Assembly: GCA_963920765.1 (NCBI GenBank)
Contig: OY987243.1
Location: 34,719,060 to 34,783,059 of the forward strand
Direction of reading: 5' to 3'
From: Ulota crispa
Lineage: Eukaryota; Streptophyta; Bryopsida; Orthotrichales; Orthotrichaceae
Length of the DNA stretch: 64,000 bases
Position 1 is the stretch's first letter. Each line of letters opens with the position of its first letter. The notes beneath the pieces were generated by a model. That model ran no database searches and was not told the origin of the DNA. It was given only the letters and a program-made list of their open reading frames with translations. Position numbers and translations under genes: made by a program. This document shows, one piece after another, positions 3,872 through 63,851 of this stretch.

Positions 3872-4000
3872 GACACAAGGAAACGATGGTCAAATCTACA
3901 AAAAGTTGACAAAGATTGTGACCTAATCTACAATATAATGTTGATTAGGTCACAATCTTTGTCAACTTTTTGTAGATTTGACCATCATTTCCTTGTAGTG
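3872..4000. mobile_element. CACTA-type fold-back MITE, family 1
   Basis: A nearly perfect palindrome of about 129 bases with arms carrying CAAAAAGTTGACAAAGATTG and outer ends ACAAGGAAA and TTTCCTTGTAGTG. Copies of the same length lie at 43498-43627 and 63722-63851. The right end keeps the CACTAC terminus in reverse; the left has lost two bases. Such arms would give an almost perfect hairpin RNA if transcribed. Confidence 0.85.
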
Positions 4001-4017
4001 ACATCACATTTCAAAAA

Positions 4018-30088: not shown

Positions 30089-30357
30089 AACACCATATTT
30101 GTTAATTTGGAAAAAACAAGTGTCCCACTTTGTACTCTACCTTAAACCCAAAAAGTTACCTTAAAACCAGATTTGAAGGGATTAGATTTAATTTGAGCCA
30201 CTAAGTTTTTTTCCCTCACAAATTTCTCCTCTCAAGTGAGGACACGTGTACAAAAAAAAATGCTAAGCTTGGTTTTAGGAGGCCTCCTAAAACTTTTAAA
30301 TCAAAATTTGAAAGTCCCAAAATGTACCGTTTTTCCCAAATTAACAAATATGACGTT
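30089..30357. mobile_element. MITE, AACACCATATTTG family
   Basis: Left end AACACCATATTTGTTAATTT, right end AAATTAACAAATATGACGTT. The core shares with its relatives CTTTGTACTCxACCTTAAACC and GAGCCACTAAG. 269 bases. Confidence 0.85.
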
Positions 30358-31033: not shown

Positions 31034-31306
31034 AACGCCATATTCAATATAAATTCATTATTTGTTAAATTGGGAAAAAACTTATAGTTTGGGACTTTTG
31101 AAGGTTTGAGGAGGTCTCTTGTTATCGAGCTCAGCGCTTTTTTGGTACATGTGTCCTCACTTGAGAGGAGGAATTTGCAAGGAAAAAAATCTTAGTGGCT
31201 CAAACTGAATATGATACCTTTGATTCTGGTTTAAGTGACTTTTTGGGTTTCAGGTGGAGTACAAAATGGTACCTCCGTTTTTCCCAATTTAATGAATAAC
31301 ATGTTT
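31034..31306. mobile_element. MITE, AACACCATATTTG family, reversed
   Basis: Left end AACGCCATATTCAATATAAA then TTGTTAAATTGGGAAAAAAC, right end TTTCCCAATTTAATGAATAA. The core runs in the opposite sense to the 30089 copy (CTCAAACTGAATxTGATACC). Confidence 0.75.
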
Positions 31307-33311: not shown

Positions 33312-33579
33312 AACACCATATTTGTTAATCTGGGAAAAAAAGATGTCCCACTTTGTACTCCACCTCAAACCCAAAAAGTTACTTTAAATCAAATTCAAAG
33401 GTATCAGATTCAGTGTGAGCCACTAAGATTTTTTCCCTCGCAAATGCCTCCTTTTAGGTGAGGGGACATGTACAAGAAAAACACTGCAAGCTAGGTTTGA
33501 GGAGACCTCCTCAAACTTTCACCTGAGAATTTGAAAGTCCCAAAATATATGGTTTTTTCCAAATTAACAAATATGGTGA
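33312..33579. mobile_element. MITE, AACACCATATTTG family
   Basis: Left end AACACCATATTTGTTAATCT, right end AAATTAACAAATATGGTGAT, 268 bases. Core shared with 30089-30357 (CCACTTTGTACTCCACCT, AGCCACTAAGATTTTTTCCC). Confidence 0.88.
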
Positions 33580-33781
33580 TTTCATTACATTTTGCAATTT
33601 TTTGCCTACATGACAACATTTTTTGGAAGTTTTAACATCAAGAAGATAGAATTACACTCAAGGTTTGGATTGACGATATTGACCATTTGCGTCACCCAAA
33701 TTTTCAGTCCAAATTCCTCTGGTACTTTTACATATATATTCATACACTGTTTTTTTATTACTCCTTTTTGTCCTTAACGGC

Positions 33782-34137: not shown

Positions 34138-34395
34138 AACACCATATTTGTTAAATTGGGAAAAACAATACATTTGGGGACTTTTGAAAGTTTTAGGTGA
34201 CCACCTAAAACCAAGCTTGCAACTTTTTTTCTAGTACATGTGCTTTCACATGAGCGGAGGAATTTGCGTGGGAAAAAATCTTAGTGGCTCAAACTGAATT
34301 TGATACCTTCAAATTTGGTTTAAGGTAACTTTTTGGGTTTAAGGTGGAGTACAAAATGGTACCTCTGTTTTTCCCAATTTAACAAATATGGTGTT
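34138..34395. mobile_element. MITE, AACACCATATTTG family, best copy
   Basis: AACACCATATTTGTTAAATT and AATTTAACAAATATGGTGTT are perfect inverted ends extending through GGGAAAAAC. TGGCAAT lies just outside on both sides (34130-34136 and 34398-34404), possibly part of an 8-9 base target duplication. 258 bases, no coding content. Confidence 0.92.
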
Positions 34396-35660: not shown

Positions 35661-36127
35661 CAGGAGATGCTGTAACGCCTCGACACTCTCCTTTCGCATA
35701 GCGTTAGCGAGTGATTCCACCGCTTTAGACCTCACAAGTTGCAGGTTTGTTGACATAGGGCCAAGTTGCATCCCAGATCCCTCGTAAGTTCGTCCGCTAT
35801 TTCCACATGTGAGCATCAGTGATCCTACCCAAATTTGTTCGCAGCCCTTTCAGATCACCAGTTCCAGTATATTCAATATCCTCTGAAATCAAAGACCGGA
35901 TAGGCGGACCCTGGCAATTGCAGTTTAGTCGGATCCATGAAAACTGCTACATGAGTACATGGAGTCTTCCTGTCTGGATGAGGTTGCCAATATGAATGCG
36001 ATTTGTCGTATACTTTTGAGGAATTTCAGCGATGACGCAAGCGGAAACCACCCAAGGGCCATGCGTACAACTACACAAACACTGCAGAGCGGTATTATAC
36101 GGCTCGGTTTACTGCACATACGTCGAT
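35661..36127. other. Low-copy, coding-like DNA outside the MULE
   Basis: GC-balanced DNA. On the minus strand, 35664-35816 encodes a helical-looking segment (KAVESLANAMRKESVEALQ), and another frame open over about 35802-35930 reads IRSLISEDIEYTGTGDLKG. On the plus strand 35959-36159 is also open. These may be exons of a gene next to or captured by the MULE, but no family is recognised and the strands conflict. Confidence 0.3.
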
Positions 36128-36444
36128 CTGGGCCCCGCATGTGTCAGGTCCAAAAATGAAAATTGTCTCCAGCTGCCCCTCACTACTAGCTGCCCAGGCC
36201 CCACACAGTCTTGGAAAATTTTCATCGACCTCCAAGGGCTTGGTGTACTCTCATCCACGCGATTGGGACAGCAGTTGGGACCTCGTCTGAAATCTGCAAG
36301 TTCAAATTCAAGACCTCAGAGCTGCGGGCATTGGGATAGACTGGAGCTATCAGGCAAGGGTGTTCCTTTTTTTCAGTCAGAAGCTGTCTTCATTCTTCTC
36401 ACGCAACTAATCTCTCATATTTCAAAACTTTTATACCTTTTGCA
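36128..36444 (+). repeat. Left terminal inverted repeat of the MULE
   Basis: From TGCCCCTCACTACTAG at 36174 to ACCTTTTGCA at 36444 this matches the reverse complement of 50680-50952, roughly nine bases in ten by eye. A further outer block (TGGGCCCCGCATG, 36130) also matches but is offset by about 35 extra bases here. It ends 305 bases before the transposase start codon and probably carries the promoter. The segment after it (36500-36720) holds three imperfect copies of a TTTTAAATCTCTCTTTGTTA unit, likely leader sequence. Confidence 0.85.
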
Positions 36445-36749
36445 CATTAGCGTGGTGTCAACTCTTGCACATCAGCTTGGAGTCTAGCGTGGAGTAAAAG
36501 TTCTTTTTGTTGTTCTACCTTGCTACTTGTCCTTTTTTTTTGAATTTTAAATCTCTCTTTGTTATTTTGTCTTGTAGTTCTTCTATTTTATTGAATCTTA
36601 AATCTCTCTTTTTGTTTTTTAGGGTTCTAGTCGTTCTTTCTTTTTGTATCTTAAACCTCTTTTTGTTATTATCCCCATATTTGTTGTGTTGTTGTCTACT
36701 TTAGTCTTCAAAAATAATTGTTTTAAATTTTAGGGTTTTAAACTCAAGT

Positions 36750-39700
36750 ATGTCAAGTGTTGATTGTCCATTTGTGGTCCAAGTTGTCACTGGACATTTG
36801 TATTATGAAGCTTTGAAATTTGAAAAAGAGATGCATAAAGTTGTAGGTATGTCAGAGTTGAAGGAAATTTTAGTGGCTTACATTCCATCATCTTCAACCA
36901 ATGATTTTATTAAAGGAGAGTGTGAAAATCTTGTAGCACCAACAACCTTTAAAGTTCAAGTTGTCAAGAAAAAAGAGCTTGGAGAATTGAAGAGGCCACA
37001 AGCTACAAGCTTCCTTCGACAGACTTGGTATGTTTCTTTCCTATGTGTTGTACATTTTTTATAAAGAATAATAAAATCAACAATTGAGAGCACTCTAATA
37101 CTAACAAACAAGCCACATAATCCTTGCGCTGCCAGCATTATAATTACATTGTCCCACACTTTGTACCTTTGAGGCTTTGGTCTTTCAAATTGAGAGCATG
37201 TCACATTTTCACTAGTAAGTGATAAGAGAATAAGGTGTCCATACTTATAATAGACTTGGATTGTATTATTTCTGTCGGTTAAGTTGGTAGTATAATAAAA
37301 AAATGCCTTCACTAAGCCTACAAGTGTAATTAGCATCTTTGGCCTTCACTAAGCCAAAAAGCTAATCTAATTTAAAAAGCCAAAAAGTATTAGGTTGGGG
37401 TTTAGCCGTGATATAATTTAAAGGCCTTCATTGAGCAAAGTATAATTAAAAAAAGAGATTGCAAATTTGCTAATGCCACAGTTTGCATTACCAACAAAGA
37501 AAATTGCCAACAAAGCAAACTTTTAACCAAAGTCTTCATGGATCTCCTAAAAAAACTGCTAAAAAACCATGAGATTTTTCAGTTGTCATGTGAAGGTGTA
37601 TTGATTATAGTTTGCTATATGATTAGGCCTTGCATGCCTTTGGGTTTTAATAAAAGTTTGACAATAAATAAGTGACTTACATGTTGAGCTTGGCTTATTT
37701 CCCAAATTGTATTTCCCAAACTGTGTCCATGGAACACATGGGTCATACTAGTTGGTTTATGATTGGCATTTATACTTTATCTCAAGCTTGAAGACATACT
37801 ATACTATTTTGTGGGAATTTATGCAAAGTTTCATTTAATGCATAAAACTTCTATTATGTGTTTATAACTATTTTTTTTTTTCTTCTATAGGTATGAATGT
37901 TCATATGGTCCCGAAGACTTTTGAACTTCACTAATGCCATTGATTGATAAAACATTCAAACCCAAAACTCGGTCTGGTAGTAGGCTGTATAGTGCTGAAG
38001 GGGGCCCTTCCATAAAAAGAGGATGTTTGTGTTATTTTTCAGTGAAGCAATTATATTTGTGGCCAACCGTATCACAAATCATATATTATCATGTAGGACG
38101 TATTGATAAAGAAGGTGTCCCTTGTCACGGTTATTTGGATCCAAGTGTAGAGAAACAAAAGGCTGTACACAAACCTTATCTTTCTCAGGAAATGAGAGTA
38201 TGGATAGAAGAAAGTTATCTTAAAACTGTACAGCATCTCAAATTATTGGTGAGCATATACAATTATTGCAAGCAAAGATTGATGTTCATGGACATGAAGA
38301 AGATATGTTACAAGACAATTACCTATTGATGATGGATATTATAAATCTCTCTATAAAATGGACCAAGAAAAAATATCAAAAACATGAAGATGACTGTACT
38401 AGTGTTCATATGTGGATGAGAGAGCATCTAGATTTGGTTTTTTTTCAACAAGACCAGATTTCAAGCTCAAGTGAATCTCAAGCCTACATACTAGGTTTAC
38501 AATCACCTTGGCAAGCTAACAAAATGTTAGAGTTTGGCCAGAAAAGCATTATAGCTTGTGATGCCACATTTGGAACAAATAAGTATAAGGTATGTATCTT
38601 TTCTTTTCATTATTTGTTGTTATTATGTAAGAAGTGACATTGTCATAAATTAAAAAATCATTTTTTAAAAGTAAAAATGCACTTTGCTATGTATTAGATT
38701 TAAATATTGAGAAATTTGATATGCAAAATTGTGTTGTTTTCATCAACTAATGTAATAACTTGTCACTTAAGTATATTTATAAAATCACATAATTTATAAG
38801 AATGTCTTACAAGTGCTTTCTAGACATGAAATAACAATATTTTACACTATATGAATACTTATTACTACTAAAATATTTTTTATCATTGATTATTGCAATG
38901 ATTATTTTAATAACAATAAAAAATTGCAACAACAACAAGCAACGTTGAAAAACAACCAACTAGCAACATGAATGCTGTAAATCATGTGAAATCCTACAAT
39001 TTAGAGAATTGCATGCATGTACAAATGGCAAATCAATTAATTGTCAAGTAAATTTTGAGGGTAAAGAAACCTAAATGTTAAGGCAACATAAATACACTAT
39101 TTAGCATAGATCTAGGGATATCCCCACATGGAGATCCAAGTCTACATTCTTGAAACTACTAAAATTGATTTAAATCATAAATTTGATTGATTACATGAGT
39201 AGACTATAATTTCAAAGAGGGCCACATTCACATCACCAAAATTAGTGATGTTAGTCACAAATTTAAACAAATTACACAAAAGAAAGACCCTAGACGACCT
39301 ATTCAAAACTGCTGAAAAAAATCATTAAGCTTAGTCCTAATTTGGGTCTTCAAATGCTTAAATTTTCCTTTTTTGTTTGACATCCTCAATGACTTTGCCA
39401 TCCTCATAGTTGTCTTTTGTCAAGTCAATGATTTGCTTAGTGACACATGTGGTAATAGAGGCAGAGTCAAGTTTGATTCCAAAAGATTGGGATTACATGA
39501 AGCTTGAAACGGGCAATACACATGCATTATTAGCTGTTAGAAAATGTTCAACACTCAAAGATTTCAAATAAGACATTGACAATTAATCTTAGAATAAATT
39601 ATAACATGTTCATAAAAATTTATGTACAATTCACTTTATAAGTGGATTTATTTTGAATTGTATAAAATATTTATACTATTATTTACATATCTTACTAATG

Positions 39701-41874
39701 CAATGTTTGGACTTTTGCAATATCACTTGTTTACACTTATGGTATTTGATACTTATTGCAATGGCATCCAAGTAGCATGGATAATCACTGACAGCGCTAA
39801 AGGTGATGACATATCATTGTGGATGTCAAAAATCAATGAGAAGATGAAAACAATGAATCCTGATTGGAAACCAAATGCCTTCATGGTGGATAATGCAGAT
39901 GTAGAAATCAACGCTATCAGGTAAATTACCAAAATGTAGCAACAATCTAAACCTTTGTTTCTTCTTGTGACTTTTTTAAAGATATCATTTTGGGGTTTCT
40001 TTTTTAATATAGGGTTTTGCTATTTTGCTGCCTTAAGTTTTCAATTATTTGAAGATGAGGATTTTTTTGCAAAATTACGTTTGTTTTGTTCTTGGCTTTC
40101 TAGTTTGTGCTAGGAATAAAATTGTGGTTGGTAGTTGTCCTTGTCAATAGAGTTTAATAGACAGTGACTACAATACATCTCTCAATTAGAAGTTCCTTAA
40201 TCATGGAGTTCTTGAATTTAATGGTGCATTAGTTAGTGGATAAAGAAGGCAACAATTCCTTTAATTGTATATGATTGTGATTGCATGTTGACAATTAGCC
40301 ATTTCTTTGTATTCACCACTTAGAGAGGTTTAATCAGATTTTTAATCATACTTTTAGGTATTCAATTTCATGTGATCACTCCTATCCTAATTAAGTACTA
40401 TTTTTAAAAAATGTTATAGTGATTTGAAGGATTTTTTGTCTTTTTAATGTATATTGATTTGAATGTTTTTTGGTTGTGAACACAGGCTTGTTTGGGGCAA
40501 TTCAATTGCAATTCTACTATGCCTATGGCATGTTTGACGTTGCTGGTTAAATCATTTGATTAAAAAGGTTTGCTCCCTTGAAGTAAGAGTGGACATAATG
40601 AAAAAGCTTGGCATGGTGATGTACATGGTTTCTTATGACAAGACAGTAGTGGAATCACATGAAGCGGTTTGTGCATTGTTGGACCAAATATTTATACAAT
40701 ATTCAAGTGAAATTGCCTTTATCACATATTTCAAACAAACTTAGCTATCTAAGATAGGTATGTCATTCTCTTTTTTTATTGCAAACTAAGCAATTTCAGA
40801 ATTTATTTTTAATTTAGTAAATTATATGTTGTTGTTGAAGTTGTTGATTTATGTATAAGTTGCTTTGTTTAAGTATCACTTTATTTACACAAAACTAACT
40901 CATTGTATTGTTTTTTGTTTTGAAATGTTTTAGATATGTGGATTAAAGCAACAAGGCAATTTCCTCATGCTGGGCAAGATACAAATGCTGCTATTGAAGC
41001 TTATGACAATGTTCTAAAACAATGACAAGCTCTAAGTAAGAAAACTCTAAGACCTAAACAACTTGATTGGTTGGTATGGTTCCTAACTTCCAATCTTATA
41101 CACCATTATTGGTACTTGGACTTTCTTAAACGCCATGGTTTTGTGAAAAATAAACACAAAATTGAAATTATATGCAACATGGTATTGAAAGCATCACAAA
41201 TTAAAAAAGAAGATGTTATCTTTCCGTCCAATTCATATGGTTCTATACTAGTTTGGAATGGTAGCCAAAAAACCAAGGTGGATTATTATGTTTCAAAACC
41301 ATCATCAAAATGGGCAGATTGTAATTGTGCTAAAGTTGGACAAGCAAATATTTGCAAACATGTCTTGAGAGTATTCCAATTGCTTTTTGGAGCAACTAAC
41401 CAACAATTGATTGGAGTATGTGAGAGGTACTTTGACTCACAGGTTGGTGGAAAGTGGACAATTCCAGAAAACCTTCAAGATTGTGATATGTCACAAATGA
41501 CTACTTATTTTTCTTTAGAGGAACCTCAATCTTGCTCTATTTTTTATGAGGAGAGTTTCACAGAGCCATGTCCTATTGTAGTACCTCCAGGGCAAGAAAT
41601 ACCTATAGACCTAAACCAAAAAATTCAAAGGCAATTTTCAGCTTTAGAGCAAATGGTTGAAGGAAAACCTTGGTTGCAACAGCATCTACTATCAGGAATT
41701 GATGCATTACAAAGTAGCATTATGGAGTTAAAAGGTAGATCACATGAGAGGGTACACAATCCAATAGATATTTTTGTTCCAATAGAAGGTACAAGTGATT
41801 CTCTAAAGCATATGAAACCACTTTGTGATATAGTATTGAGAAACTCATCCAAGAAGAAGAAATGTTCCAATTAG
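36750..41874 (+). pseudogene. MULE transposase with SWIM zinc finger, decayed
   Basis: Six inferred exons: 36750-37027, 37891-38589, 39721-39920, 40486-40757 and 40934-41874, with the second perhaps divided. Introns begin GTATGT or GTAAAT and mostly end in AG. The DDE core of MULE transposases is recognisable: ACDATFGTNKYK (first Asp codon 38560), the following FTLMVFD strand, FMVDNADVEINAIR (second Asp codon 39889) and the LLCLWHV motif before 40535. A SWIM finger of form CxCx8CxH follows (Cys codons 41320, 41326, 41353; His 41359). This enzyme family cuts and rejoins element ends in the nucleus. Breaks: TGA 37922, a one-base frameshift between about 38237 and 38266, an AA instead of AG acceptor at 39719-39720, TGA 40535, TAG 40742, TGA 41023. 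The last 267 codons (41071-41874) remain open. Confidence 0.92.
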
Positions 41875-43497
41875 TGATATTGTGAGTTGCATCTAACCTG
41901 ACCGCTTCTTTCCTCTCCACATATTCAAGTTTATTACTTATCATAAATGTCTTTAGCTTAGTCTTGGAATTTCTAGAACACATTTACTCTATCTAAGGAT
42001 ATTATGAATGATTTCTTTTATCTATTGGTATACTTTTCTAAATTCTTTGAATCCTCCATAGTAAAACAATTTAGTTTTGAAATAAAAGTGACCACATTTG
42101 ATCATTTTTGCATTGAAGCATTCATCTGGACATGTCTTGGGATACTATTTATAGAAGTGATCAAATCCTTGCATATCTTACTACTTTTTATTCAAATTTT
42201 TCTAAGTACTTTTTCTTTGAGAAGGCAATAAAGCTGCTTTTAATTGGTTTTTTTGGTTCACATTCAAGGAATCTGAAGCTCCCATGGAGAATAAGAAGAG
42301 CAAGCAGTTGCAACCTCGTCAATGTGGCCGCTCAAATGGGTTTAGGTACTGGAAACATTTTCCAATGAATTTGTTATACGTTGAGGTATTACTCCCTCTA
42401 TTTCACTAAAACACCCGTGTTTTGACTTATTCTTTGTTTCAAAAAAAATCATGTCTGTAAATTCACTTGTTTTTTTCCCAATAAAAACCTATGCTTATCT
42501 CTAAAATAAAATGATTTGCTTGCAATGCTTGTTGATATGTACTGGGCATTTCATGCTCATTAATTGCTAAAGCTAGCAATTAATATTTGATTTAGTGGTT
42601 TTTGTTTGCAAACTCTGCCTATCATAAAGCCAAAATTCATCAATATATAGTATCAACACTAAGATTTGGTTTTTTGATAGATGGGACAACTTGGGCATGT
42701 AGGCTAACTTGTTCTTTACTTACAATTGCATTGACACATTTCATATCAATCAAATTTTTAATTATAGGCAACAATAACCTTTTCTAGAAAACTTCAATTA
42801 CAAAAAAAACAAAAACTGACTTAATAATGGTTTAAACCTAATACCCAATAACTTCCAATTACAATGTCTTGGTAATATTTCTTAATCTGTCACAAATTCT
42901 CAAACACAGGTTTTTTAGTGAAACAGAGGGATTATTGTTTATATAGTACTTGCACCACTGTATTGCAATCTTGAACATCCTTCTGGTCAAGGAAAAACAA
43001 TTTTTTTGGACTTCTAAGTTCTTTAGCCATTGACAGCACTCCAAACCTTAGGCATTTGTGCCTATTCCTTGTTGTCTGATTATGTTTGTTTGGACTGGAA
43101 TTTTATAGTTAACCTTTCTATAGTTTGGGACTGTAACCTTGTCAAGATCTACTTGCTTGGTGAACTAGATAGAATAAATTGACAAAACTTTCTTTTATGC
43201 CGTGTTTTTGGGTTTATTGTAGGTATATCTTGGAGAACAAGGATCTAGAATTCTGCCAGAGGGAAATTCAAAAGGAGAATAACAAAGGTACTCTTGCTTG
43301 GGCTTGGAACTTCTCATCATTGGTTGGTAAGATTACAATGGATTATCAATCGTTGGCACAATTTGTTGTCTAGGCTTATTTGAGCTCTTGTGACTCCGGT
43401 CTTTCTGTAATGAAATGTTACAATCAGCCACAATGTCTTTTTTTTTTGTTCCATTGGCAGTGACATCCTTGCTTTTTTGAGGTCATATGAGAGCTTT

Positions 43498-43627
43498 CAC
43501 TACAAGGAAATCATGGTCAAATTTACAAAAAGTTGACAAAAATTGTAACCTAACCTAAAATGTATTATAGGTTTGGTCATAATTTATGTCAACTTTTTGT
43601 AAATTCAACCATGATTTCCTTGTAGTG
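43498..43627. mobile_element. CACTA-type fold-back MITE, family 1
   Basis: CACTACAAGGAAATCATGG at the left and its exact mirror CCATGATTTCCTTGTAGTG at the right; 130 bases with nearly full-length pairing. Both CACTAC tips are intact. It is nested in the MULE. The three bases outside (TTT and AGT) do not match, so no target duplication. Confidence 0.9.
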
Positions 43628-43862
43628 AGTTTTCCAATGTCTGATTACAACAAATGTCATGAGAGTCTAAGTAGAGGAGTCTAACATTCAACTTTGTTGG
43701 TCATGTGATTTTGCAGCTCAAGCATGCATTGAGCTGTAACTTATACATGGAGAATTATAATTTGCTCTTGATTCAAGCATGAACTGTAAACACGGTTTTG
43801 TTTGTTGAGTAAGTGAGTTTTAAAGTCAATAAGGATATGATCTCATTGACATTTTTTTGATG

Positions 43863-44273
43863 GGGAATTGATATGTGTACTACACCATTTCAATTATTGT
43901 ACCACACCCTAGAGTAAATTTAAGATTTCTACCATTAAAAAGCTGAATTTGAGAAATTGGAATTCACTTTTGGACTAAGAGACCATGATTTTGTTTGGAA
44001 CCACAAAAAAGTTGCAATTCAACAACACTCAATGAGAAAGTTTAGTTAGGGAGAAAAATGTTACTTTTACTTGTGTTTGTAAAAAAATATAAGCTTTTTC
44101 ATTGGATGTTGTTGAATTGCAACTTTTTTTGTGGTTCTAGACAAAATCATGGTCTCTAAGTCCAATATTTGAATTCCAAATTCTCAAATTTAGCTTTTTG
44201 ATGGTAGAAATCTTAAATTTATTTTGGGGTGTGGTAAAGTAATTGAAAGGGTGTGGTACACATATCAATTCCC
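43863..44273. mobile_element. Fold-back MITE GGGAATTGATATGTGTACC, copy 3
   Basis: GGGAATTGATATGTGTACTA mirrors GTACACATATCAATTCCC. Arms of about 190 bases pair, with TTGCAATTCAACAACA near the centre. Nested in the MULE between Josephin-like exon remnants. Confidence 0.88.
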
Positions 44274-46510
44274 TTTTTGATGATGTGATTACAGTTTTGT
44301 AATGTCCTCTATACTTTAAATAGGATGTTTTAGACTCAATCAATGGTGTTGGCACTAAATTTCAAAGTGTTGTTGGAGATTGGTGAAGTACATCAATCCT
44401 AGGATTTGACAAACAACTAAAACTTATAACTATGTCAAATTCTTCTTGAAAAGCTAGGGAAACACCTAAAGTATGGCAATAACTATACAAGGAAGTGCTG
44501 AGAACGTGTACCATGAGAGGCGACAATTTCAATTGACCTTGCAACATTGCCGAAATTATCTTCTTCAGGTCTATTTCTCTTCTTTAAATTTCTTCTGTAG
44601 TGTGATAAATTTTTTGAATTCCCGTCCATTATAAATGCTGAAATAGCAATAAACCTCCAAAAACCATTTTTCCAGCATTTCACCGGTTTTAAATAGACCT
44701 TCTTATTTTTTATATTTTTTGGTTCAGGTCCATGTTCCAAGCATGTACCTTGCTAGAAGGCTAATATACTCCATATCACAAAACACACCACAAATGATTT
44801 TGATAGTGTGTTTCTACCTTCAAAAATAGTTTTGAAGTATATTAGTATCCATGTTTGGGAGAGAGGAGTAACATAGAGGACCTCCACCCTAGACCCAGCA
44901 ATTTTTATGGTATGAAGGCAACAAAACCGTATGCAAAATAGCATTTATACTCTTCAAAGGTCCATGAGCTCACTCCATACAAAATTCTTGCTATTGTAAC
45001 TGGCCTAGTCATAAACCTTACTAGCTTCCCTCATGATTTGCAGTTTACAAGAGTCTTGGAAAAACACCTTAAAAGTTAGAATCAAAATCTTAATGGGGAA
45101 TGTTACACCATGATCGGGGATCTGTGTGCCGTGAGCTTGGATATTTTGACACAAAATTGAACTTCACCTACATCTATGAATAAAAGGCCTTATAATTGTG
45201 CATTTCAAACTATCATGTCTTGAAAAACTTGTTGTTTTTTTTTGTTTTCCATTGATTTGAGCTCAAAATGGACCCTAGCTCATTCAAATCTTGGCTCACT
45301 GCTCATGGATAATTGTTTACGCTCACAAAATAGTGTCGTCTGAGTCTTTATCTTGTAGGGCCTTAAAGGACAGAAACTGTATTACATGCTATATGTATCC
45401 TATGTTTCTTCCTCCGGAGTCTTTTAGAGTACAAACTTTCCTTATTTACACTTCCTAAAAGTGAGTTTGTTATTTAATTTGTATCTTTGGTGACATGGCT
45501 TCCTTAGGACTTTTGCTTATGATTCTTCATGATTGTTGCATCTGCTTGATAGGGCAAGGATACTTTTACCAAAGAAGAGCTGAACTCCATAGCAGATGGC
45601 TTATCCACTACCAATGTTCAATCTAGTGTGCTAAATCCTCTGTCCTTGATACTCAAGCCCCACAAAAATGTTGTGACAAGAAAGTACGATGCAAACATGT
45701 TGGTTCCTACTATGAATGCAAAGGTTAAGAGGTTGTTTGGTTTGATTGCCGCAAAGGAATTGATGACTTCATTTTGCAAGTTGCAAAATACGTGGACGAG
45801 CTACTAGGCACGGTAGTAATCTTTTCAACCAAGAGATTGCTAGGGATGTGGCAGGGCCGGCACTGGGTTGCAGTTTGGAAGCTGCAAGGCTTTTAGTATA
45901 ACCTAGACACTAACTATGTTGCGCCATTTTGCTTGGGGAATGGGATGATGACTTCAGAAACTATTTGAATATTGTAGCCTCTACTCAAACTGTAGTCATG
46001 TTTGTCTTGAACAAGCCATGTGATGGGCACATATGATCTAAATCTTATCATCCGGAATTCATAGTGCATTTTCCAATGAGTATGAGGTTGGGTTGCCAAA
46101 CCAAAATTTGATGTTTGTTTACAAAATTTGCTGTTTCTTAACATGTCAGGAGCCGCCACTAAGCTTAGGAGTGGAGCCATGTTGCGGTTTACAGAGAAAA
46201 TTGGAGGCAAACTCATTGTTACAATTAGAAAGAATTGCCCTCTCAATTTAAATTTCATATGCTGCACTTTGGTTCATTGAAATTTAAGCAAAGAAAGGTG
46301 TTTTTTGAAGTTAGTTTTCTTGTGCAATTACTGTCACTGGATTTGGACCCAAGTTGTGAGACTGTAATTGATTTAGTGATGTGAGATTTGGAGGCTTATA
46401 AATTCATTAATCTTTAGTAATTGATGATTTTTTACCTTTCTATTTTGCAAGCACGATATTTAGTATAAAGTCTTAACTCATATTATAATTGAAGAAGTTT
46501 TAACAATGAT

Positions 46511-47490
46511 AAATTTAGGGAATTGGTAAAGCCACATCCAAAATTGCTAACGCCACACCCCAAGGTGTGCTTTAAGCAAGAAATGTGAGAATTTGATGTT
46601 GATTTTTTTGGTTTGAAACCAAAAATTCGTTTCACCTACATCATTGTAAGTCTACATCCAAAAAAATGGAAGTGCTTGAATTTGGTTTTACAAGTATATA
46701 ACTTTTGAATCACTTAAAGCAGAAATACATATAAAGAATAGCAGTGGTGCAATAAAAGTTCAACAAGGTTTTATATTTGTTCTTCTTTCTTTCAAGGAGA
46801 TGGTAATGCCATGATTACATGAATGATGGACCACTTGAACAAAAGATATAGCACTACAAAATCAAATTATATGCTCATAAGGGTGTGGCATTAGCAATTC
46901 CCTATGTATATGGGGAATTGCTAAAGCCACACCCAAAATTGCTAATGCCACACCTTGTAAGCATGTGAATTGAGAATTGAATGCTACATCTTTTATTCAA
47001 GTGATCCATCATTCATTCAATCATGTCATCACCACCTCCTTGAAAGAAGGGAAAACAAAGGTATATATGAAGAATTGCCAAAGCCACACCCAAAATTGCT
47101 AACGCCACACCATGTGAGCATGTAAATTGAGAATTTAATGCTATATCTTTTATTCAAGTAATCCATTATTCATTCAATCATGTCATCACCACCTCCTTGA
47201 AAGAAGGTGAAACAAAGGTATATATTTTTTTGAATTTTTAATGCACTTTTGCTATTTTTTTGATGTATTTTTGCTTTAAGTGAATCAAAAATCCTATGTC
47301 TTTAATTTCAAATTTGAACATCTCCAAATTTTTTGAGTATGGCCTTAGAAGTTACAACAATAAAGGTGAAACAAATCATTTGTTTCAAATTTAGAAAATC
47401 AATACTAAATTTTCACATTTCATGCTCAAAGCACACCTTGGGGTGTGACGTTAACAATTTTGGATGTGGCTTTACCAATTCCTTAAATTT
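46511..47490. mobile_element. Nested fold-back array GGAATTGCTAAAGCCACACC
   Basis: Outer arms (46511-46625 and 47380-47490) begin AAATTTAGGGAATTGGTAAA and its complement. Between them lie a complete 385-base fold-back ending at 46902 and two direct units of about 155 bases (46913-47070 and 47071-47229) each starting with AATTGCxAAAGCCACACCCA. At least five copies of the same end occur in one kilobase, showing self-insertion plus tandem duplication. Confidence 0.8.
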
Positions 47491-49145
47491 ATTTGAAAGA
47501 GCACTTTTTGACAAAATATTGTGTGTTGCTCTCATAATGTATATCGTTTTTGAAAATACCGATGACCCATACAATTTGAAGTTCACTTTCAGATGTATTA
47601 TAATTTGTAAATTTATAAAAATAGTCATATGTACGATTTTTTGTGGGCCAAATTGCATTAGGTGTCGAGGCTTTGAGGAATGACAATAAATTTCAATATA
47701 CTCTAGTTTCTTCAATTTGTGGGTTATAAAGAACAAGCATGACAAGATTTTTGGCATATCTTTAAAGAAGTTTTTTTTGATTATGTATTTAAGAATATGT
47801 GATTTAGGACATTGGATCAAGGAAGATTCAACATCCTAAGTGCACTTTATCATGCAATTTTATTATTCTACTACAATGCATCTAACATTATATCCATTGA
47901 ATGATCTAGGCCCTTTCATTTCATCTACAAACCTCCTCATGGAAACAAAAATTATATTGAAGTATCTCTTGCCCCCCATTTGCATGAATTGGTCCCCATT
48001 TTTTGAATTGGCACACAAACCCATCCACAAATCTCTTGATGCACTTTAAGAGGGCTACAAATATGAAAAAACTCATGCATTTAAAGTTACTGTCATGCAT
48101 GGTTGTTGCTTTTTGAGTTTTTGGTTCTTTTGAAATAGTAAAAGATGGCATGTTATTCATTTATTGGAATCAAGAAGTGTCCATAAGTTGTATATCAAAT
48201 ATTTAGAACTAACATACAAGTTCTGGATTGCATGCCATAGTACATGTAGAAAATGCACCTTTATCATGGTATGCAAGTAACTATGAGTTTTGAAATAGTA
48301 AGAAAATAAGACTAACAATAATGTGAGGGTTTGAGTATTAAGATTTGACCAAATTGACAAATAGATTATGCATCTGTATGCTAAAGCAAATGACGTATAC
48401 TCTTCTCATGCTTCATGTATTGTAAACAGTGTATATTGATCTCCATGTCTGATCCCACCAACCACAGAAGAATTTGATTTTTTCTAGAAATTTAAACAAC
48501 AAAAACGGAGATCATTGTACTACTACAATTAGAAAGCCCTTTGTAATATCATATCTCTACCTCTTTGTGATATAATCACATATATAAAATTTGAAAACCT
48601 TTAAACAATGAATGAATTTGAACATGTCTCATGTTTACATCTACCCTTCCTTCATCCATTTGATTATATGTTTTCCTTCATGTTTGTTTGATTCAGATTT
48701 TCAAAATTCCTCCTTGTAAAGTCAAAGAGTATATGTATGTTTATTATCAAAAGGTAACATCGAAACAAGAGTTCCATTCATGAACTCAATAATTAACAAA
48801 TTTAAAAAAAAAATCAAGAACGCTAAATAGATATTTATATTTAAGCCCATGGGAATTTGTGTAGGTTGCCAAAATTATCAACAGTCACCAAATAGTGAAC
48901 TTAATCCCTAAATGTTGAGGCAAATGGAAAATGACCAATGCATACTAAAAAAAATACTCTAGAAAAAGTGGTTCTTCATTTCATTTGTTTAGTAAGTGAT
49001 CATAAATGCATGGTGCATCATGGGAAGGCAAAAAGTTATCTCATCATATGCACTTGTATTTTTAGGTGATTCAATTTCTAAAAAATATAGAGATAGGGTG
49101 TTAGGTTTCATGCAATCCTTCTTGGAATTTTCATAAAAGCAATAA

Positions 49146-49452
49146 ATCCCATATTCATTAAATTGGGAAAACCATATTCAAAAGTTGCACTTCATCTTAA
49201 ATCCAAAGTTTTTTTTTTTTGGCATTTGAACTGCAGATTTGAAGGTTGAGATTATTTGAATTGTAGATTTGAAGGTATCAAATTTGGTAAGAGCCAATGA
49301 GATTTTGTCCCTCGCAAATTCTCCCTCTCAGGTGAGGGCATGTGTACCAAATAATGTTGCTTAAACCTAGAGCTTGGTTTAAGGTGATCACCTTAAACCT
49401 AATTTATTCCCGAAATTGGGGATTCTTTCCAAATTAACGAATATGGCATTAA
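49146..49452. mobile_element. MITE, AACACCATATTTG family
   Basis: Left end CCCATATTCATTAAATTGGG, right end AAATTAACGAATATGGCATT, 307 bases. Core keeps GAGCCAATGAGATTTTGTCC. Nested in the right part of the MULE. Confidence 0.78.
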
Positions 49453-49692
49453 CATGCATTGTGCAGCTTTTTGAATCAATATTAAAATAGATGGGCACTT
49501 GCCACACCACTGTATAGCATTGTAGAGGGGCTAGTTGCAATGACTAGCACAATGTATAAGGGTTAAAAAGAATTTGAATTTTTGATTTTATATTATTTAT
49601 GAATATACCAAATGCTATAATGAATCCATATATACGGACATGATTTGTTGTAACTCAAGAGTATTTGGGTAATTTGCCGTAGTACCAAACCT

Positions 49693-50344
49693 TTAACCCC
49701 TCAAGGCCCATGCACTTTCGTGAGTATCTCAAAATCTATTCTTGGATGAACAAAATGTCAACATTTTGATAAGTTGCATCAATTTTTTAAAATTTTAACC
49801 ATACAAATTCACACTAAATATGATAGATCACATAGGAAAAGAAAACACAACATCACTTTTGGATTGAAAGATTATAACATTTTATCAAGAGGGTGTTAAA
49901 ATTGTGAACATGATTTAAAGTCTTTCAATCCTCTTTTCACATCTCAAATTTAAAATTGAGGATACCAAAAAAATATGAGTATGGAAATTAGAACATCTGT
50001 AACCCTATTTAGTTTACTGCTTCTTATAATTAATCTACTCTACAACTTTTTTAATTTAGTTTCTAATGTCAATGTTTCTCCAAATTCTAGTGTATTTTAG
50101 GCTCATTTCCAAGAGCTCTCAACACTAAAAAGTGAAGATTTTCAATAAACATCCTTGCACAAAATCTTAAATAGAAAAATTGTAATTAATCATTTTCAAA
50201 GTCAAACTTTTCATACTAAAACAAGATTCAACAATAACTTTAAAAAAGTAATAATCATTGTAATTAATCATGAAGAATTTTTTTGCATCCCAAAGTACAA
50301 AGAAGGAGGGACAATTTTGGTCCCCTTGGGCGTTGAGGGGTTAA
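49693..50344. mobile_element. piggyBac-like element, 652 bp
   Basis: TTAACCCCTCAAGGCCCATG at the left and TTGGGCGTTGAGGGGTTAA at the right. Nested in the MULE about 340 bases inside its right terminal repeat. No coding content beyond a 76-codon frame without motif. Confidence 0.85.
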
Positions 50345-50679
50345 TATGGAACATCTTGAATTATTTTGAGCACATTGTGAGCTAAAAATAAAGACTCCGC
50401 AATTTTGGTTGTTATTAAACATTCAACTATGTAGCAACAAAAATCCAAGCTTAGCAATTGCAATAATCAGTTGATTTTTGTTCCACTAATTTAGCAAGAA
50501 TGCAAAACTTTTCAAATTGCTTGATAGTATTTTTTATTTTATATTGTAGTGTAAACTTGTACTGATTATAGCTATTAAAAAATGCAATTAAAATATTTTG
50601 TTGCACCAACATTCAAATGCAACAAGCATCTCCACAAAAAACATACGTATTATACTGATTTTGAAGAAAGTGTAGGGAT

Positions 50680-50963
50680 TGCAAAAAGGTATAAAAGTTT
50701 TGAAATATGAGAGATTAGCTACATGAGAAGAATGAAGACAGCTTTTGACTAAAAAAAAGGGAACACCCTTGCTTGACAGCTCCAATCTATCCCGATGCTC
50801 GCAGCTCTGAGGTCCTGAATTTGAACTTGCAGATTTCAGATGAGGTCCCAACTGCTGTCCCAATCGCGTGGATGAGAGTATACCAAGCCCTTGGAGGTCA
50901 ATGAAAATTTTCCAAGATTGTGTGGGGCCTGGGCAACTAGTAGTGAGGGGCATGTGAGGCCCA
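50680..50963 (-). repeat. Right terminal inverted repeat of the MULE
   Basis: Reverse complement of the left repeat: TGCAAAAAGGT at 50680 to AGTAGTGAGGGGCA at 50952, with an outer GGGCC block to about 50963. A long open frame on the minus strand here is also open in the left copy, but amino-acid changes dominate over silent ones, which argues against coding. Confidence 0.85.
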
Positions 50964-51367: not shown

Positions 51368-51623
51368 AAACACAATATTAGGTAAATTGGGAAAACGGGG
51401 GTCCCAATTTGTATGTAACCTAGATCCAGAGAAGTCACCTTAAACCAGATTTGAAGATATCAGATTCAGTGTGAGCCACTAAATTTTTTTCCCTCACAAA
51501 TCCCTTCTCTCAAGTGACGACACATGTACCCAAAAAAAATTCGAGCTTAGTTTTAGGTGATCACCTAAAACCTTCAAAAGTTCCAAAAAGTACTCTTTTT
51601 CTCAATTCACCTAATATGGTGTT
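51368..51623. mobile_element. MITE, AACACCATATTTG family, TTAGGTAAATTGGG variant
   Basis: Left end AACACAATATTAGGTAAATT, right end AATTCACCTAATATGGTGTT, 256 bases. Core keeps AGTGTGAGCCACTAAATTTT. Confidence 0.82.
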
Positions 51624-60830: not shown

Positions 60831-61391
60831 ATGTGCTAGACTAGTTATTCTTGTCCCATGTGCTCCACTACTAATTATCAAATTGATGATTAATGAAGTT
60901 AAATTTTTAATTAGGTTAGCAATTTATCTACCATTTTTAATCAATAAAATGGATTTAATCTTATTAGAAGACAGATATTGAAAATATAATAATATAATAA
61001 TTGTGATAGTTTTTGAAAAGGGGTTAGAAAATAAATTAGGAGATAAAAAAAAATGTTTTTGATTTTACAAAAAAGAAGAAAATTTCAATTTCAAAATTGA
61101 AGAGCATTAACTAATTTTAGTGCAGTCCAAAGTTCATTTGCATATATTTATCAATTACCAACAAAAAATAAGTTTATAAGCCATAATTAATCCAAAAGTT
61201 GAGCAATGATTTATTTCATGAATTTAAAAGGTGTACTTTTACAATTTAATCTACAAGCATTCTATTATTTAATAGGAATTAAAATATTTGCACAAACTTT
61301 GTTATAACTATATATTATCCATATCTATAATTAAATGCAATTTTAGAGTTTTCTGTGGTGGTCAGTCAATTGAATTAACTAAATTTTGTTA
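60831..61391. other. Very AT-rich stretch without recognised content
   Basis: A + frame from 60796 to 60981 is hydrophobic but without motif. No repeats recognised. Confidence 0.45.
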
Positions 61392-61530
61392 GGAGTAGGG
61401 TTTGTCTTGGGAGTAGGGTTTAGTTGAGGAGTAGGGTTTGGCTAGGGGATTGGGGACTTGGTTGGGGAGATTGGGAACTTGGTTGGGGAGATTGGGAACT
61501 TGATTGGGGAGATTGGGAACTTGGCTGGCA
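61392..61530. repeat. Two adjoining minisatellites
   Basis: First, an ~18-base unit GGAGTAGGGTTTxGTTGx in three copies (61392-61446). Then a 21-base unit GGGGAGATTGGGAACTTGGTT in about four copies (61447-61530). The first contains TAGGGTTT, the plant telomere word, but not in tandem register. The G-strand skew is strong. Confidence 0.9.
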
Positions 61531-61764
61531 TGGGACCATGGAGGGCCATGGAAGATAGAAGGCTATGGGGAGGGCCAAGGGAGGAGGAGGGAGGGCATGG
61601 GGCCATGGGATCTTAAGAGAAAGGCTACAAATATCTAAATCTAAAAACTTTTTTGAGGCAATCAATTTTTTAGATTGCTTTCATGCGTAATCATGTCTCT
61701 TGTGTGACCCTTTTGGTACGACAAATATTGAAGACTTGTGTATCTTATTTATATAATAGGCTTA

Positions 61765-62400
61765 TTTTTATTAGTTGGGTAGTTGGGTGTTTGTATTCCC
61801 AAATGATTACATAGTGGTTATGGTTGGTTATTTCTATTAGTTGGGTAGTTGGGTGTTTGTGCTCCAAGAAGATTAAATGGCGGTTATGGTCTGCCTTGGG
61901 GATGGGGTACACACAAAGATAGGGGTTGGCCGTAAGAGAAGGAGGTGAACTGCTTAAACTTTCTTGCATGATAGCCTTCCTCCAGAACGGTGGGTGCAGG
62001 AATCCATTAGTCTATATTATAATGATGCCAACCTCATCCTTCACTGTAAGTACTCATTTTTCCTATCCTTGCCCTATAATGCTCAACAAAATCAAATTTT
62101 AGGTTAAAAATACGTGAATCAAGTTTTACTTGTCTTAATCTTTCATCTATTAAAGCACAATCTACTGATAAGAGGAATTGCATCATTTCTTTCAATTTCA
62201 AAAATCAAGTTATGCAAAATTATGCATATCATCCCTTTATCTTCAATTACATCTAACTTATATTGCCTATGCAATCTAATTTCTATAATAGAATGCAATC
62301 TCTATTAATTGGGTAGTAGCAAAGTTGACATGCTTCAAGAAGATTAAATGGCGGTTATGTTGGCGGTGGTTGTCCTCAAGGATGGGGTATACACTAGGAT
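61765..62400. repeat. Locally repeated ~60-bp and ~130-bp modules
   Basis: ATTAGTTGGGTAGTTGGGTG occurs at 61778 and 61837, followed by related text; AGAAGATTAAATGGCGGTTA recurs near 61868 and 62338, each followed by GGATGGGGTA-CAC. Three related blocks thus lie within 630 bases. Their Pro/Leu-rich minus-strand frames follow from GT-rich repeats. Confidence 0.7.
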
Positions 62401-62947: not shown

Positions 62948-63721
62948 AACAGCGGGTGCACAAGTCCACTAATTGTAGTATAATACTCCTTTTTATTTGC
63001 AAAAAGCCAAAACAACATTCAATGTCTTTTTTTGCAGCCTCTCCTATTTTTGCAAAATATGTTTCCTTCTGCTATTGTTATCCATAGATGATTTGTACAA
63101 AATGCTCCACAATGGATAAATTGAATCCATCAACAATTGATAATATCTTTTATAGTCTGTCATTTACCTCAAACTTGAAATCATGAATTTGGTTTTTGAG
63201 ATAATTATGTAAGACATAGCTACTATCCAAAATGTTTATGTCACTATTGGTTCAAGACATACCAAGAAAAACATGTCAAATCCATAATGATTGGACGTCA
63301 TATATAGCTTCTAAAATGATTATGTAATTTCCGTCTTTGTCAATGAATTGACCTTGCCATGTCGTCAAATAATTCTTCTATTGTAGGTGCATGCAATCAA
63401 ATGATTCAAACATTTTTTTCAAATACTATTTATTTTCATTTCCTTCATTATGTCTTCACAACATATTTTTTTTTATAAATTTGTAGTATTACACACAAAA
63501 ATCTTCTTAATAATTTAACTAATGTAGATTCCAATAAACTTTACAGATTCATCACAAGCGTCCATAGTATATCCATATACCAGTTGCTTTATAATGGCAT
63601 AGCAATTTTGCATGCTTGAAATACCTTATTTTTGAGTTGCATTTAGTTTTTGTTAAAAACATTTTTAATGCACTTCAACATCTTTAACTATCTTCAAAAA
63701 CTTGCATTGACATTCAATATT
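62948..63721. other. AT-rich stretch without recognised content
   Basis: No meaningful frame or repeat ends seen. Confidence 0.45.
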
Positions 63722-63851
63722 CACTACATGGAAACCATGGTTGAATTTACAAAAAGTTGACAAAGATTGTGACCTAATCTACAATATATTGTAGATTAGG
63801 TCACAATCTTTGTCAACTTTTTGTAAATTTGACCATGATTTTCTTGTAGTA
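63722..63851. mobile_element. CACTA-type fold-back MITE, family 1
   Basis: CACTACATGGAAACCATGG at the left, mirrored by CCATGATTTTCTTGTAGT at the right; centre CTACAATATATTGTAG is a perfect palindrome. 130 bases, the same length as the copies at 3872 and 43498. Confidence 0.9.

What the first reader, a model, noticed from the sequence alone, without database searches (positions are those of the whole stretch)
36128..50963. A 14.8-kb MULE that appears to carry a Josephin-type ubiquitin protease beside its transposase
Seen: inward-facing ~270-base repeats flank a SWIM/MULE transposase and a Josephin-domain reading frame in the same orientation. Known: some plant MULEs (Kaonashi type) carry Ulp1-like SUMO-protease genes, and Pack-MULEs capture host exons. 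Inferred: here a different cysteine protease, an ataxin-3/Josephin deubiquitinase, was taken in or has become a passenger. I am not aware of Josephin cargo being described for MULEs.
Basis: partly seen in the sequence, partly recalled or inferred. Interest (0 to 1): 0.82.

Follow-up and report, generated by a model that had tools for sequence, protein, structure and literature searches.

The report
Transposon carrying a dead Josephin gene
A jumping-gene element in this genome picked up a whole host gene for a Josephin-type ubiquitin-cutting enzyme and copied it around, but the carried gene is broken in the same ways in the three copies examined, so it looks like dead baggage rather than a new tool of the element.

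Summary
Window 36101-50952 is a Mutator-like element (MULE): inverted repeats of 269 bp at 93.7% (about 343 bp in full; the window's right end lacks the outer 73 bp), a decayed MULE-domain transposase, and Josephin sequence in the same orientation. In the same genome the Josephin sequence recurs beside these repeats at C2:8.7 Mb (both repeats found) and C1:1.04 Mb (one found), at nearly the same distance from the repeat (9452, 9497, 9471 bp) and with unrelated outer flanks. A deletion derivative on C9 has a perfect 9-bp target duplication. The Josephin therefore moved with the element. The cargo copies a complete two-exon host gene with intron and flanks; a homologue with open frames lies at C1:26.78 Mb. 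All three cargo copies share loss of the catalytic cysteine, two 1-bp deletions and a stop codon, and exon 2 diverges about as fast as the intron. The cargo was dead before these copies split: transduplication, not an added protease. Josephin cargo in MULEs was not found in the limited literature searched. The kind of event is known. Interiors of the other copies could not be fetched: the genome server stayed busy from then on, apart from one answer.

The parts
36092..36100 (.). left flank GTATTATAC, the expected place of a 9-bp target duplication; no partner found because the right end is truncated
36101..36441 (+). left terminal inverted repeat, full length (outer end GGCTCGGTTTACTGC)
   Evidence: aligned with the C9 repeat over 343 bp; common outer border in 7 of 8 fetched repeat loci
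36502..36670 (.). about 51-bp tandem repeat just inside the left inverted repeat
37925..41872 (+). decayed transposase gene, exons roughly 37925-38588, 39721-39921, 40486-40741, 40934-41872 (joined by eye, splice borders uncertain); at least one frameshift (near 38220) and two in-frame stops
   Evidence: PF10551 E=7.1e-12 and PF21056 E=3.1e-9 on the read-through
43078..47828 (+). stretch with homology to host Josephin loci, interrupted by later inserts: 43729-47776 colinear with the C1:26.78-Mb locus; 43078-43304 and up to 47828 matched only by the C7 pseudogene among the loci held
44473..44568 (+). Josephin exon 1 homologue (MAITIQGSAENVYHERRQFQLTLQHCRNYLLQ); catalytic Cys position is Thr
44569..45552 (+). 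captured intron; 614 aligned positions at 77.7% identity to the host intron
45553..46036 (+). Josephin exon 2 homologue through to the host's stop codon position (484 bp against 486 in the host), with two 1-bp deletions and a Trp-to-stop change
46519..47483 (.). foldback element nested in the cargo's downstream flank, 9-bp duplication ATAAATTTA/TTAAATTTA (8 of 9); present in L010 and L011 too
47797..50952 (.). right-hand part of the element, the only interior kept by the 3.6-kb C9 derivative (94.9% identical); no Pfam match above cutoff among the frames scanned
50684..50952 (-). right terminal inverted repeat, outer 73 bases missing

Best explanation
A transposase-bearing MULE of about 15-16 kb took in, at the DNA level, a complete two-exon host Josephin-like deubiquitinase gene with its intron and flanks (transduplication). 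The copy lost its catalytic cysteine and its reading frame. The element then spread to at least three places, carrying the dead gene as a passenger. Shown here: the inverted repeats; target duplications on the two copies with both ends complete (one perfect, one 7 of 9); recurrence at nearly constant spacing with unrelated flanks; colinearity with the host gene including the intron; shared lesions; exon 2 diverging about as fast as the intron. Inferred: that the interval between the left repeat and the Josephin holds the transposase in the other two copies (from equal spacing only); that the capture went by aberrant gap repair or template switching; and that an intact transposase copy drove the spread.
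For: The Josephin query hits five places (six matches). Three lie beside these inverted repeats (window; C1:1031820, 96%; C2:8713568, 95%). The distance from repeat outer end to exon 2 is 9452, 9497 and 9471 bp. The C2 copy is 15909 bp with flanks CTTTAAAAC/CTCTCAAAC (7 of 9), and the C9 derivative is 3591 bp with GATGCAAGT on both sides. Outer flanks share nothing at the borders. The C1:26.78-Mb gene is open over two exons, PF02099 E=1.5e-31, PDB Josephin-2 E=3e-24, with its Cys aligned to that of Josephin-2 and ataxin-3. The window is colinear with it over 5' flank, exon 1, intron, exon 2 and downstream DNA. The lesions are shared by 3 of 3 cargo copies. Pairwise differences in exon 2 are 4.2-4.9% against 3.6-5.0% in the intron. 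dN/dS of the cargo majority sequence against the host gene is 0.60.
Against: Only pieces of about 3.3 kb around the hits in the other copies were seen, so their transposases and full structures are unread. The C1:1.04-Mb copy shows only one inverted repeat. The C2 target duplication is imperfect. Of the five strong repeat loci, two (C9 and C1:2.31 Mb) have no Josephin hit. Two of three pairwise dN/dS values between cargo copies are below 0.5 (0.46, 0.48; the third is 1.62), and copy L010 against the majority gives 0.16 on 11 changes (the other two 1.22 and 1.56); counts are small, but the ratios alone do not prove neutrality.
Confidence: 0.86

Rival explanations
1. The Josephin is (or very recently was) a working accessory protease of the element, a role in the way of Ulp1 in Kaonashi MULEs.
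For: Same orientation as the transposase; both exons and the intron were taken in; much of the domain is still recognisable (PF02099 1.2e-11 on the read-through); two of three pairwise dN/dS values between copies are 0.46 and 0.48.
Against: Catalytic Cys replaced by Thr, two 1-bp deletions and a stop shared by 3 of 3 copies; exon 2 diverges about as fast as the intron; the C1 copy has also lost the AG before exon 2 at the host's position.
Confidence: 0.03
2. Segmental duplication: a MULE inserted beside a Josephin pseudogene, and the whole region was copied by other means.
For: Window copy lacks a complete right end; the C1:1.04-Mb copy shows only one repeat.
Against: Flank homology stops at the repeat's outer base in 7 of 8 repeat loci, the eighth being the truncated window right end; the C2 copy has both ends and a 7 of 9 duplication.
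Confidence: 0.07
3. Composite origin (a variant of the best explanation, not exclusive of it): two neighbouring MULEs with the same repeats, one with transposase and one like the 3.6-kb C9 element, lost their inner ends and enclosed a host Josephin gene, the route described for Pack-CACTA elements (PMC13317346, passages).
For: The C9 element equals the window element's right part plus a left repeat, and joins at 47797, close to where host homology ends (47776-47828).
Against: The C9 element shares ten bases (GCACATTAGC) beyond the repeat with the left end of the large elements, which fits an internal deletion of the large element better.
Confidence: 0.1

Closest known systems
Kaonashi / Ulp1-carrying MULEs (Arabidopsis, melon, rice, grapevine)
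   Same: A cysteine-protease gene taken into a MULE that also has transposase sequence (PMC13317346 and PMC2528002, passages).
   Different: Those have Ulp1 (Kaonashi is non-TIR, with conservation reported); this one has Josephin, long inverted repeats and a dead frame.
Pack-MULEs
   Same: Host gene DNA with its intron between MULE inverted repeats, with 9-bp target duplications.
   Different: Pack-MULEs are non-autonomous, without transposase (PMC3310237, PMC4858842, passages), and those of Jiang 2004 did not exceed 7 kb (PMC6431247, passage); here about 15-16 kb, with transposase and a whole gene.
[quoted passage not shown]
   Same: Transduplication of introns and exons by a MULE family (PMC2528002, passage).
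   Different: Other gene; details not compared.
Josephin deubiquitinases (Josephin-2, ataxin-3; plant Josephin-like proteins are recalled, not searched)
   Same: Host homologue matches PDB Josephin-2 at 3e-24 and ataxin-3 at 5.8e-13.
   Different: The element's copy lacks the catalytic Cys and an open frame.

Membership tests
Mutator-like element (MULE) | long terminal inverted repeats (usually 100-500 bp) | tested here: met
   269 bp at 93.7% in the window, 343 bp at 91.5% in the C9 element
Mutator-like element (MULE) | 8-11-bp target-site duplication | tested here: met
   2 of 2 copies with both ends complete: C9 9 of 9, C2 7 of 9; the window copy cannot be judged, its right end is truncated
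Mutator-like element (MULE) | MULE-type transposase | tested here: met
   PF10551 E=7.1e-12 on the read-through; broken in the window, not read in other copies
Mutator-like element (MULE) | SWIM zinc finger in the transposase | tested here: inconclusive
   E=0.025 and 0.058, below Pfam's cutoff
Pack-MULE | carries host gene sequence | tested here: met
   two Josephin exons and intron
Pack-MULE | no transposase (non-autonomous) | tested here: not met
   transposase sequence remains between the repeats, though broken
Kaonashi-type Ulp1 MULE | Ulp1 domain | tested here: not met
   no Ulp1 match among the 23 stretches between 36000 and 51000 scanned one by one (8, 5, 10, some overlapping); not every short frame was scanned
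Kaonashi-type Ulp1 MULE | no long terminal inverted repeats | tested here: not met
   long inverted repeats present
Josephin deubiquitinase | Josephin domain | tested here: met
   PF02099 E=1.2e-11 on the read-through; single frames alone gave none
Josephin deubiquitinase | catalytic Cys | tested here: not met
   host FQFCLLH is FQLTLQH in the window, and Cys is Thr in 3 of 3 copies
Josephin deubiquitinase | intact reading frame | tested here: not met
   two 1-bp deletions and a stop shared by 3 of 3 copies

The most novel reading that the evidence does not exclude
The Josephin gene once worked for the element, for example by deubiquitinating and stabilising its transposase or by countering ubiquitin-linked silencing, and decayed before the copies seen here spread; intact Josephin-bearing MULEs would then survive in relatives or elsewhere in this genome.
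Probability: 0.06. Interest if true: 0.75.

Novelty: new member of a known kind. Interest (0 to 1): 0.34.

Why it matters
It is a clear case of a complete host gene, intron and flanks included, taken into a transposase-bearing MULE and multiplied after it had died. [quoted passage not shown] It adds Josephin to the cysteine proteases caught by MULEs, and warns that 'protease cargo' seen by homology need not be a working gene.

Tried and rejected
Rejected: a working protease in the copies read (shared lesions). Rejected: a retrocopy, because the intron is present in the cargo and aligns with the host intron. Rejected: C7:18.84 Mb as the intact host gene. It is itself broken, and its apparent 266-bp intron is an insertion of a dispersed repeat with five near-full-length relatives in the window. 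Rejected: C7 as a relic of the same cargo, because it lacks the cargo's two shared deletions. It does share the 43078-43304 piece with the window, so its exact relation to the parent gene stays open. Three-taxon counts in exon 2 (422 columns; host-only 19, cargo-only 33, C7-only 38, all different 4) do not say which locus is the parent.

Led nowhere: Pfam on single open frames (nothing above a cutoff), PDB search with exon 2 alone, Rfam and tRNA scans of the window (none). A codon-position count used exon 1 one base out of phase and was not used; one search replaces it. The exon 1 difference counts carry the same one-base shift. The repeat places at 80% (C1:30.49 Mb) and at 71-74% (three) were not examined.

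Literature: 'Josephin' with transposable element (89 papers, 20 listed, many for other word senses), with MULE (13, all listed), with transposon, pseudogene and plant (1), with Pack-MULE (1), and two of Mutator-like, deubiquitin, ataxin-3 (649 papers, 10 listed, all on ataxin-3). None of the listed titles and abstract starts describes Josephin in a MULE. The Pack-MULE hit (PMC6431247) showed no 'josephin' in its main text, nor did the review PMC13317346. Papers were seen as search listings and passages only; none was read whole.
Full report
The finding says that a 14.8-kb MULE carries a Josephin-type protease next to its transposase. The window lies at C2:34719060-34783059 of an unnamed 275-Mb genome. 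It is probably a flowering plant, judging by content; that is inference and no tool named it.

Anatomy. The inverted repeats 36174-36441 and 50684-50952 match at 93.7% over 269 bp. Searching the genome with 36174-36444 gave 12 matches, the window's two included. Eight are at 92-100%, one at 80% and three weak at 71-74%; the last four were not followed. The eight strong ones form three pairs (window; C2:8.71-8.72 Mb; C9:5.60 Mb) and two singles (C1:1.04 Mb, C1:2.31 Mb). In 7 of these 8 places the sequence continues 73-74 bases outward to a common border GGCTCGG (GGCTTGG or GGCTCGA in single copies), after which the flanks are unrelated. The exception is the window's right end, where those bases are missing. 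In about 1.4 kb of flank each, the only similarity above the cutoff was between one C2 flank and one C9 flank: three pieces of 116-158 bp at 70-74%, the nearest ending 40 bases from the C2 border and 315 from the C9 border.

Target duplications. The C9 element (3591 bp) has GATGCAAGT on both sides. The C2 copy (15909 bp) has CTTTAAAAC and CTCTCAAAC, 7 of 9. These are marks of a MULE, whose repeats are given as usually 100-500 bp and duplications as usually 8-11 bp in PMC4858842 (passage). PMC3310237 accepts up to two mismatches (passage).

Transposase. Open pieces between 37925 and 41872 joined by eye give PF10551 at 7.1e-12 and PF21056 at 3.1e-9, both above Pfam's cutoffs; SWIM stays below its cutoff. 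In the window the gene has at least one frameshift and two in-frame stops, and the inner splice borders are uncertain. The window copy is unlikely to move by itself: its transposase is broken and its right end truncated (inference).

Josephin. The piece 45553-45968 gave six matches in five places: the window, C1:1031820 (96%), C2:8713568 (95%), C1:26776057 (85%) and C7:18843469-18844153 (two pieces, 80 and 84%). The first three lie beside the inverted repeats in the same relative orientation. The distance from the repeat's outer end to exon 2 is 9452 bp in the window, 9497 on C2 and 9471 on C1. The 3.4-kb stretches around the two other hits align with the window at 96% over their whole length. 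So 3 of the 5 strong repeat loci carry Josephin. For C1:1.04 Mb no right-hand repeat was found; the C1:2.31-Mb left end has no Josephin hit, and the C9 element lacks it.

The parent gene. C1:26.776 Mb (locus L012, reverse strand) is open in two exons, of 96 and 486 bases including the stop, separated by an intron with GT and AG borders, and codes for 193 residues. It matches PF02099 at 1.5e-31 and PDB Josephin-2 at 3e-24, ataxin-3 at 5.8e-13. Its FQFCLLH lines up with the Cys of both; that this Cys is catalytic is recalled knowledge. That the gene is expressed or functional was not tested. The window is colinear with this locus from 43729 (272 bases before the start codon in the host) to 47776: 5' flank, exon 1 at 44473-44568, intron, exon 2 at 45553-46036 through to the host's stop codon position, and downstream DNA. 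The capture was therefore of DNA, not of a spliced RNA, and it covered the whole coding region.

The cargo is dead, and was dead before it spread. Relative to the host gene, 3 of 3 element copies share Cys to Thr (TGC to ACC), a 1-bp deletion in GCAA-AGG, TGG to TAG, and a 1-bp deletion in AAT-GGG. Differences between copies are 4.2-4.9% in exon 2 and 3.6-5.0% in the intron; exon 1 gives 4.2-9.4% on only 96 bases. dN/dS, taken in the host's frame, is 0.60 for the cargo majority sequence against the host gene. That fits a constrained host branch and a free cargo branch, but does not prove it. Between copies the three pairwise ratios are 0.46, 0.48 and 1.62, and against the majority sequence 0.16, 1.22 and 1.56. 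Counts are small and the scatter is wide, so the case rests on the shared lesions. Cargo-to-host divergence (614 aligned intron positions, 77.7% identical) is several times that between copies. So either the capture or the split from the gene it came from is much older than the spread.

C7 is a second broken Josephin locus. Its 266-bp gap is an insertion of a repeat with five near-full-length relatives in the window. It lacks the cargo's two shared deletions but shares 43078-43304 and the stretch up to 47828 with the window. Perhaps the cargo came from that lineage; this is open.

The C9 element consists of the left repeat plus window 47797-50952 (94.9%), without transposase or Josephin. It also shares ten bases beyond the repeat with the left end of the large elements, so it is best read as an internal deletion of the large element. 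The alternative, that it is like one of two neighbouring elements that enclosed a host gene, cannot be excluded. That route is described for Pack-CACTA elements in PMC13317346 (passages). Frames in the right-hand part gave no Pfam match above cutoff.

What is known. MULEs with Ulp1 protease genes are described for Arabidopsis, melon, rice and grapevine, and transduplication is called common in grapevine (PMC13317346 and PMC2528002, passages). Pack-MULEs are defined as lacking transposase, so this element is not one, though its cargo behaves like theirs. No Josephin cargo turned up in the listings of five literature searches (two of them showed only part of their hits) of an open-licence library that lacks most subscription papers. 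What is particular here is the gene, its completeness, the size and the presence of transposase; the kind of event is known.

Limits. The genome server was busy, except. So the interiors of the other copies, a genome-wide Josephin count and the wider host loci are unread.

Noticed in passing
window 46519-47483: Foldback element with long arms and a 9-bp duplication (ATAAATTTA/TTAAATTTA, 8 of 9) nested in the captured Josephin flank; shared by the C1 and C2 copies at 2.0-2.4% divergence.
   Followed up: partly
window 43497-43628, also 63709-63850 and 3875-4001, and L006:2767-2898: Short hairpin repeat family (arms 88-89% alike inside the element), one copy inside the element.
   Followed up: no
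window 30095-30357, 31056-31305, 33318-33582, 34138-34389, 51375-51623: Dispersed repeat of about 253 bp (70-80% alike), the same that is inserted in the C7 Josephin pseudogene where it looks like an intron.
   Followed up: partly
L012, downstream of the Josephin gene (reverse-strand 2003-2220): Stretch in the host locus resembling window 38839-39077, which lies between transposase exons: probably a dispersed repeat (66.7%).
   Followed up: no
window 43863-44273: Foldback insert (82-90% arms) in the captured 5' flank, absent from the host locus at that point.
   Followed up: partly
window 61385-61528 and 61762-61890: G-rich tandem repeats with strong GC skew (0.40 over 61001-62000).
   Followed up: no
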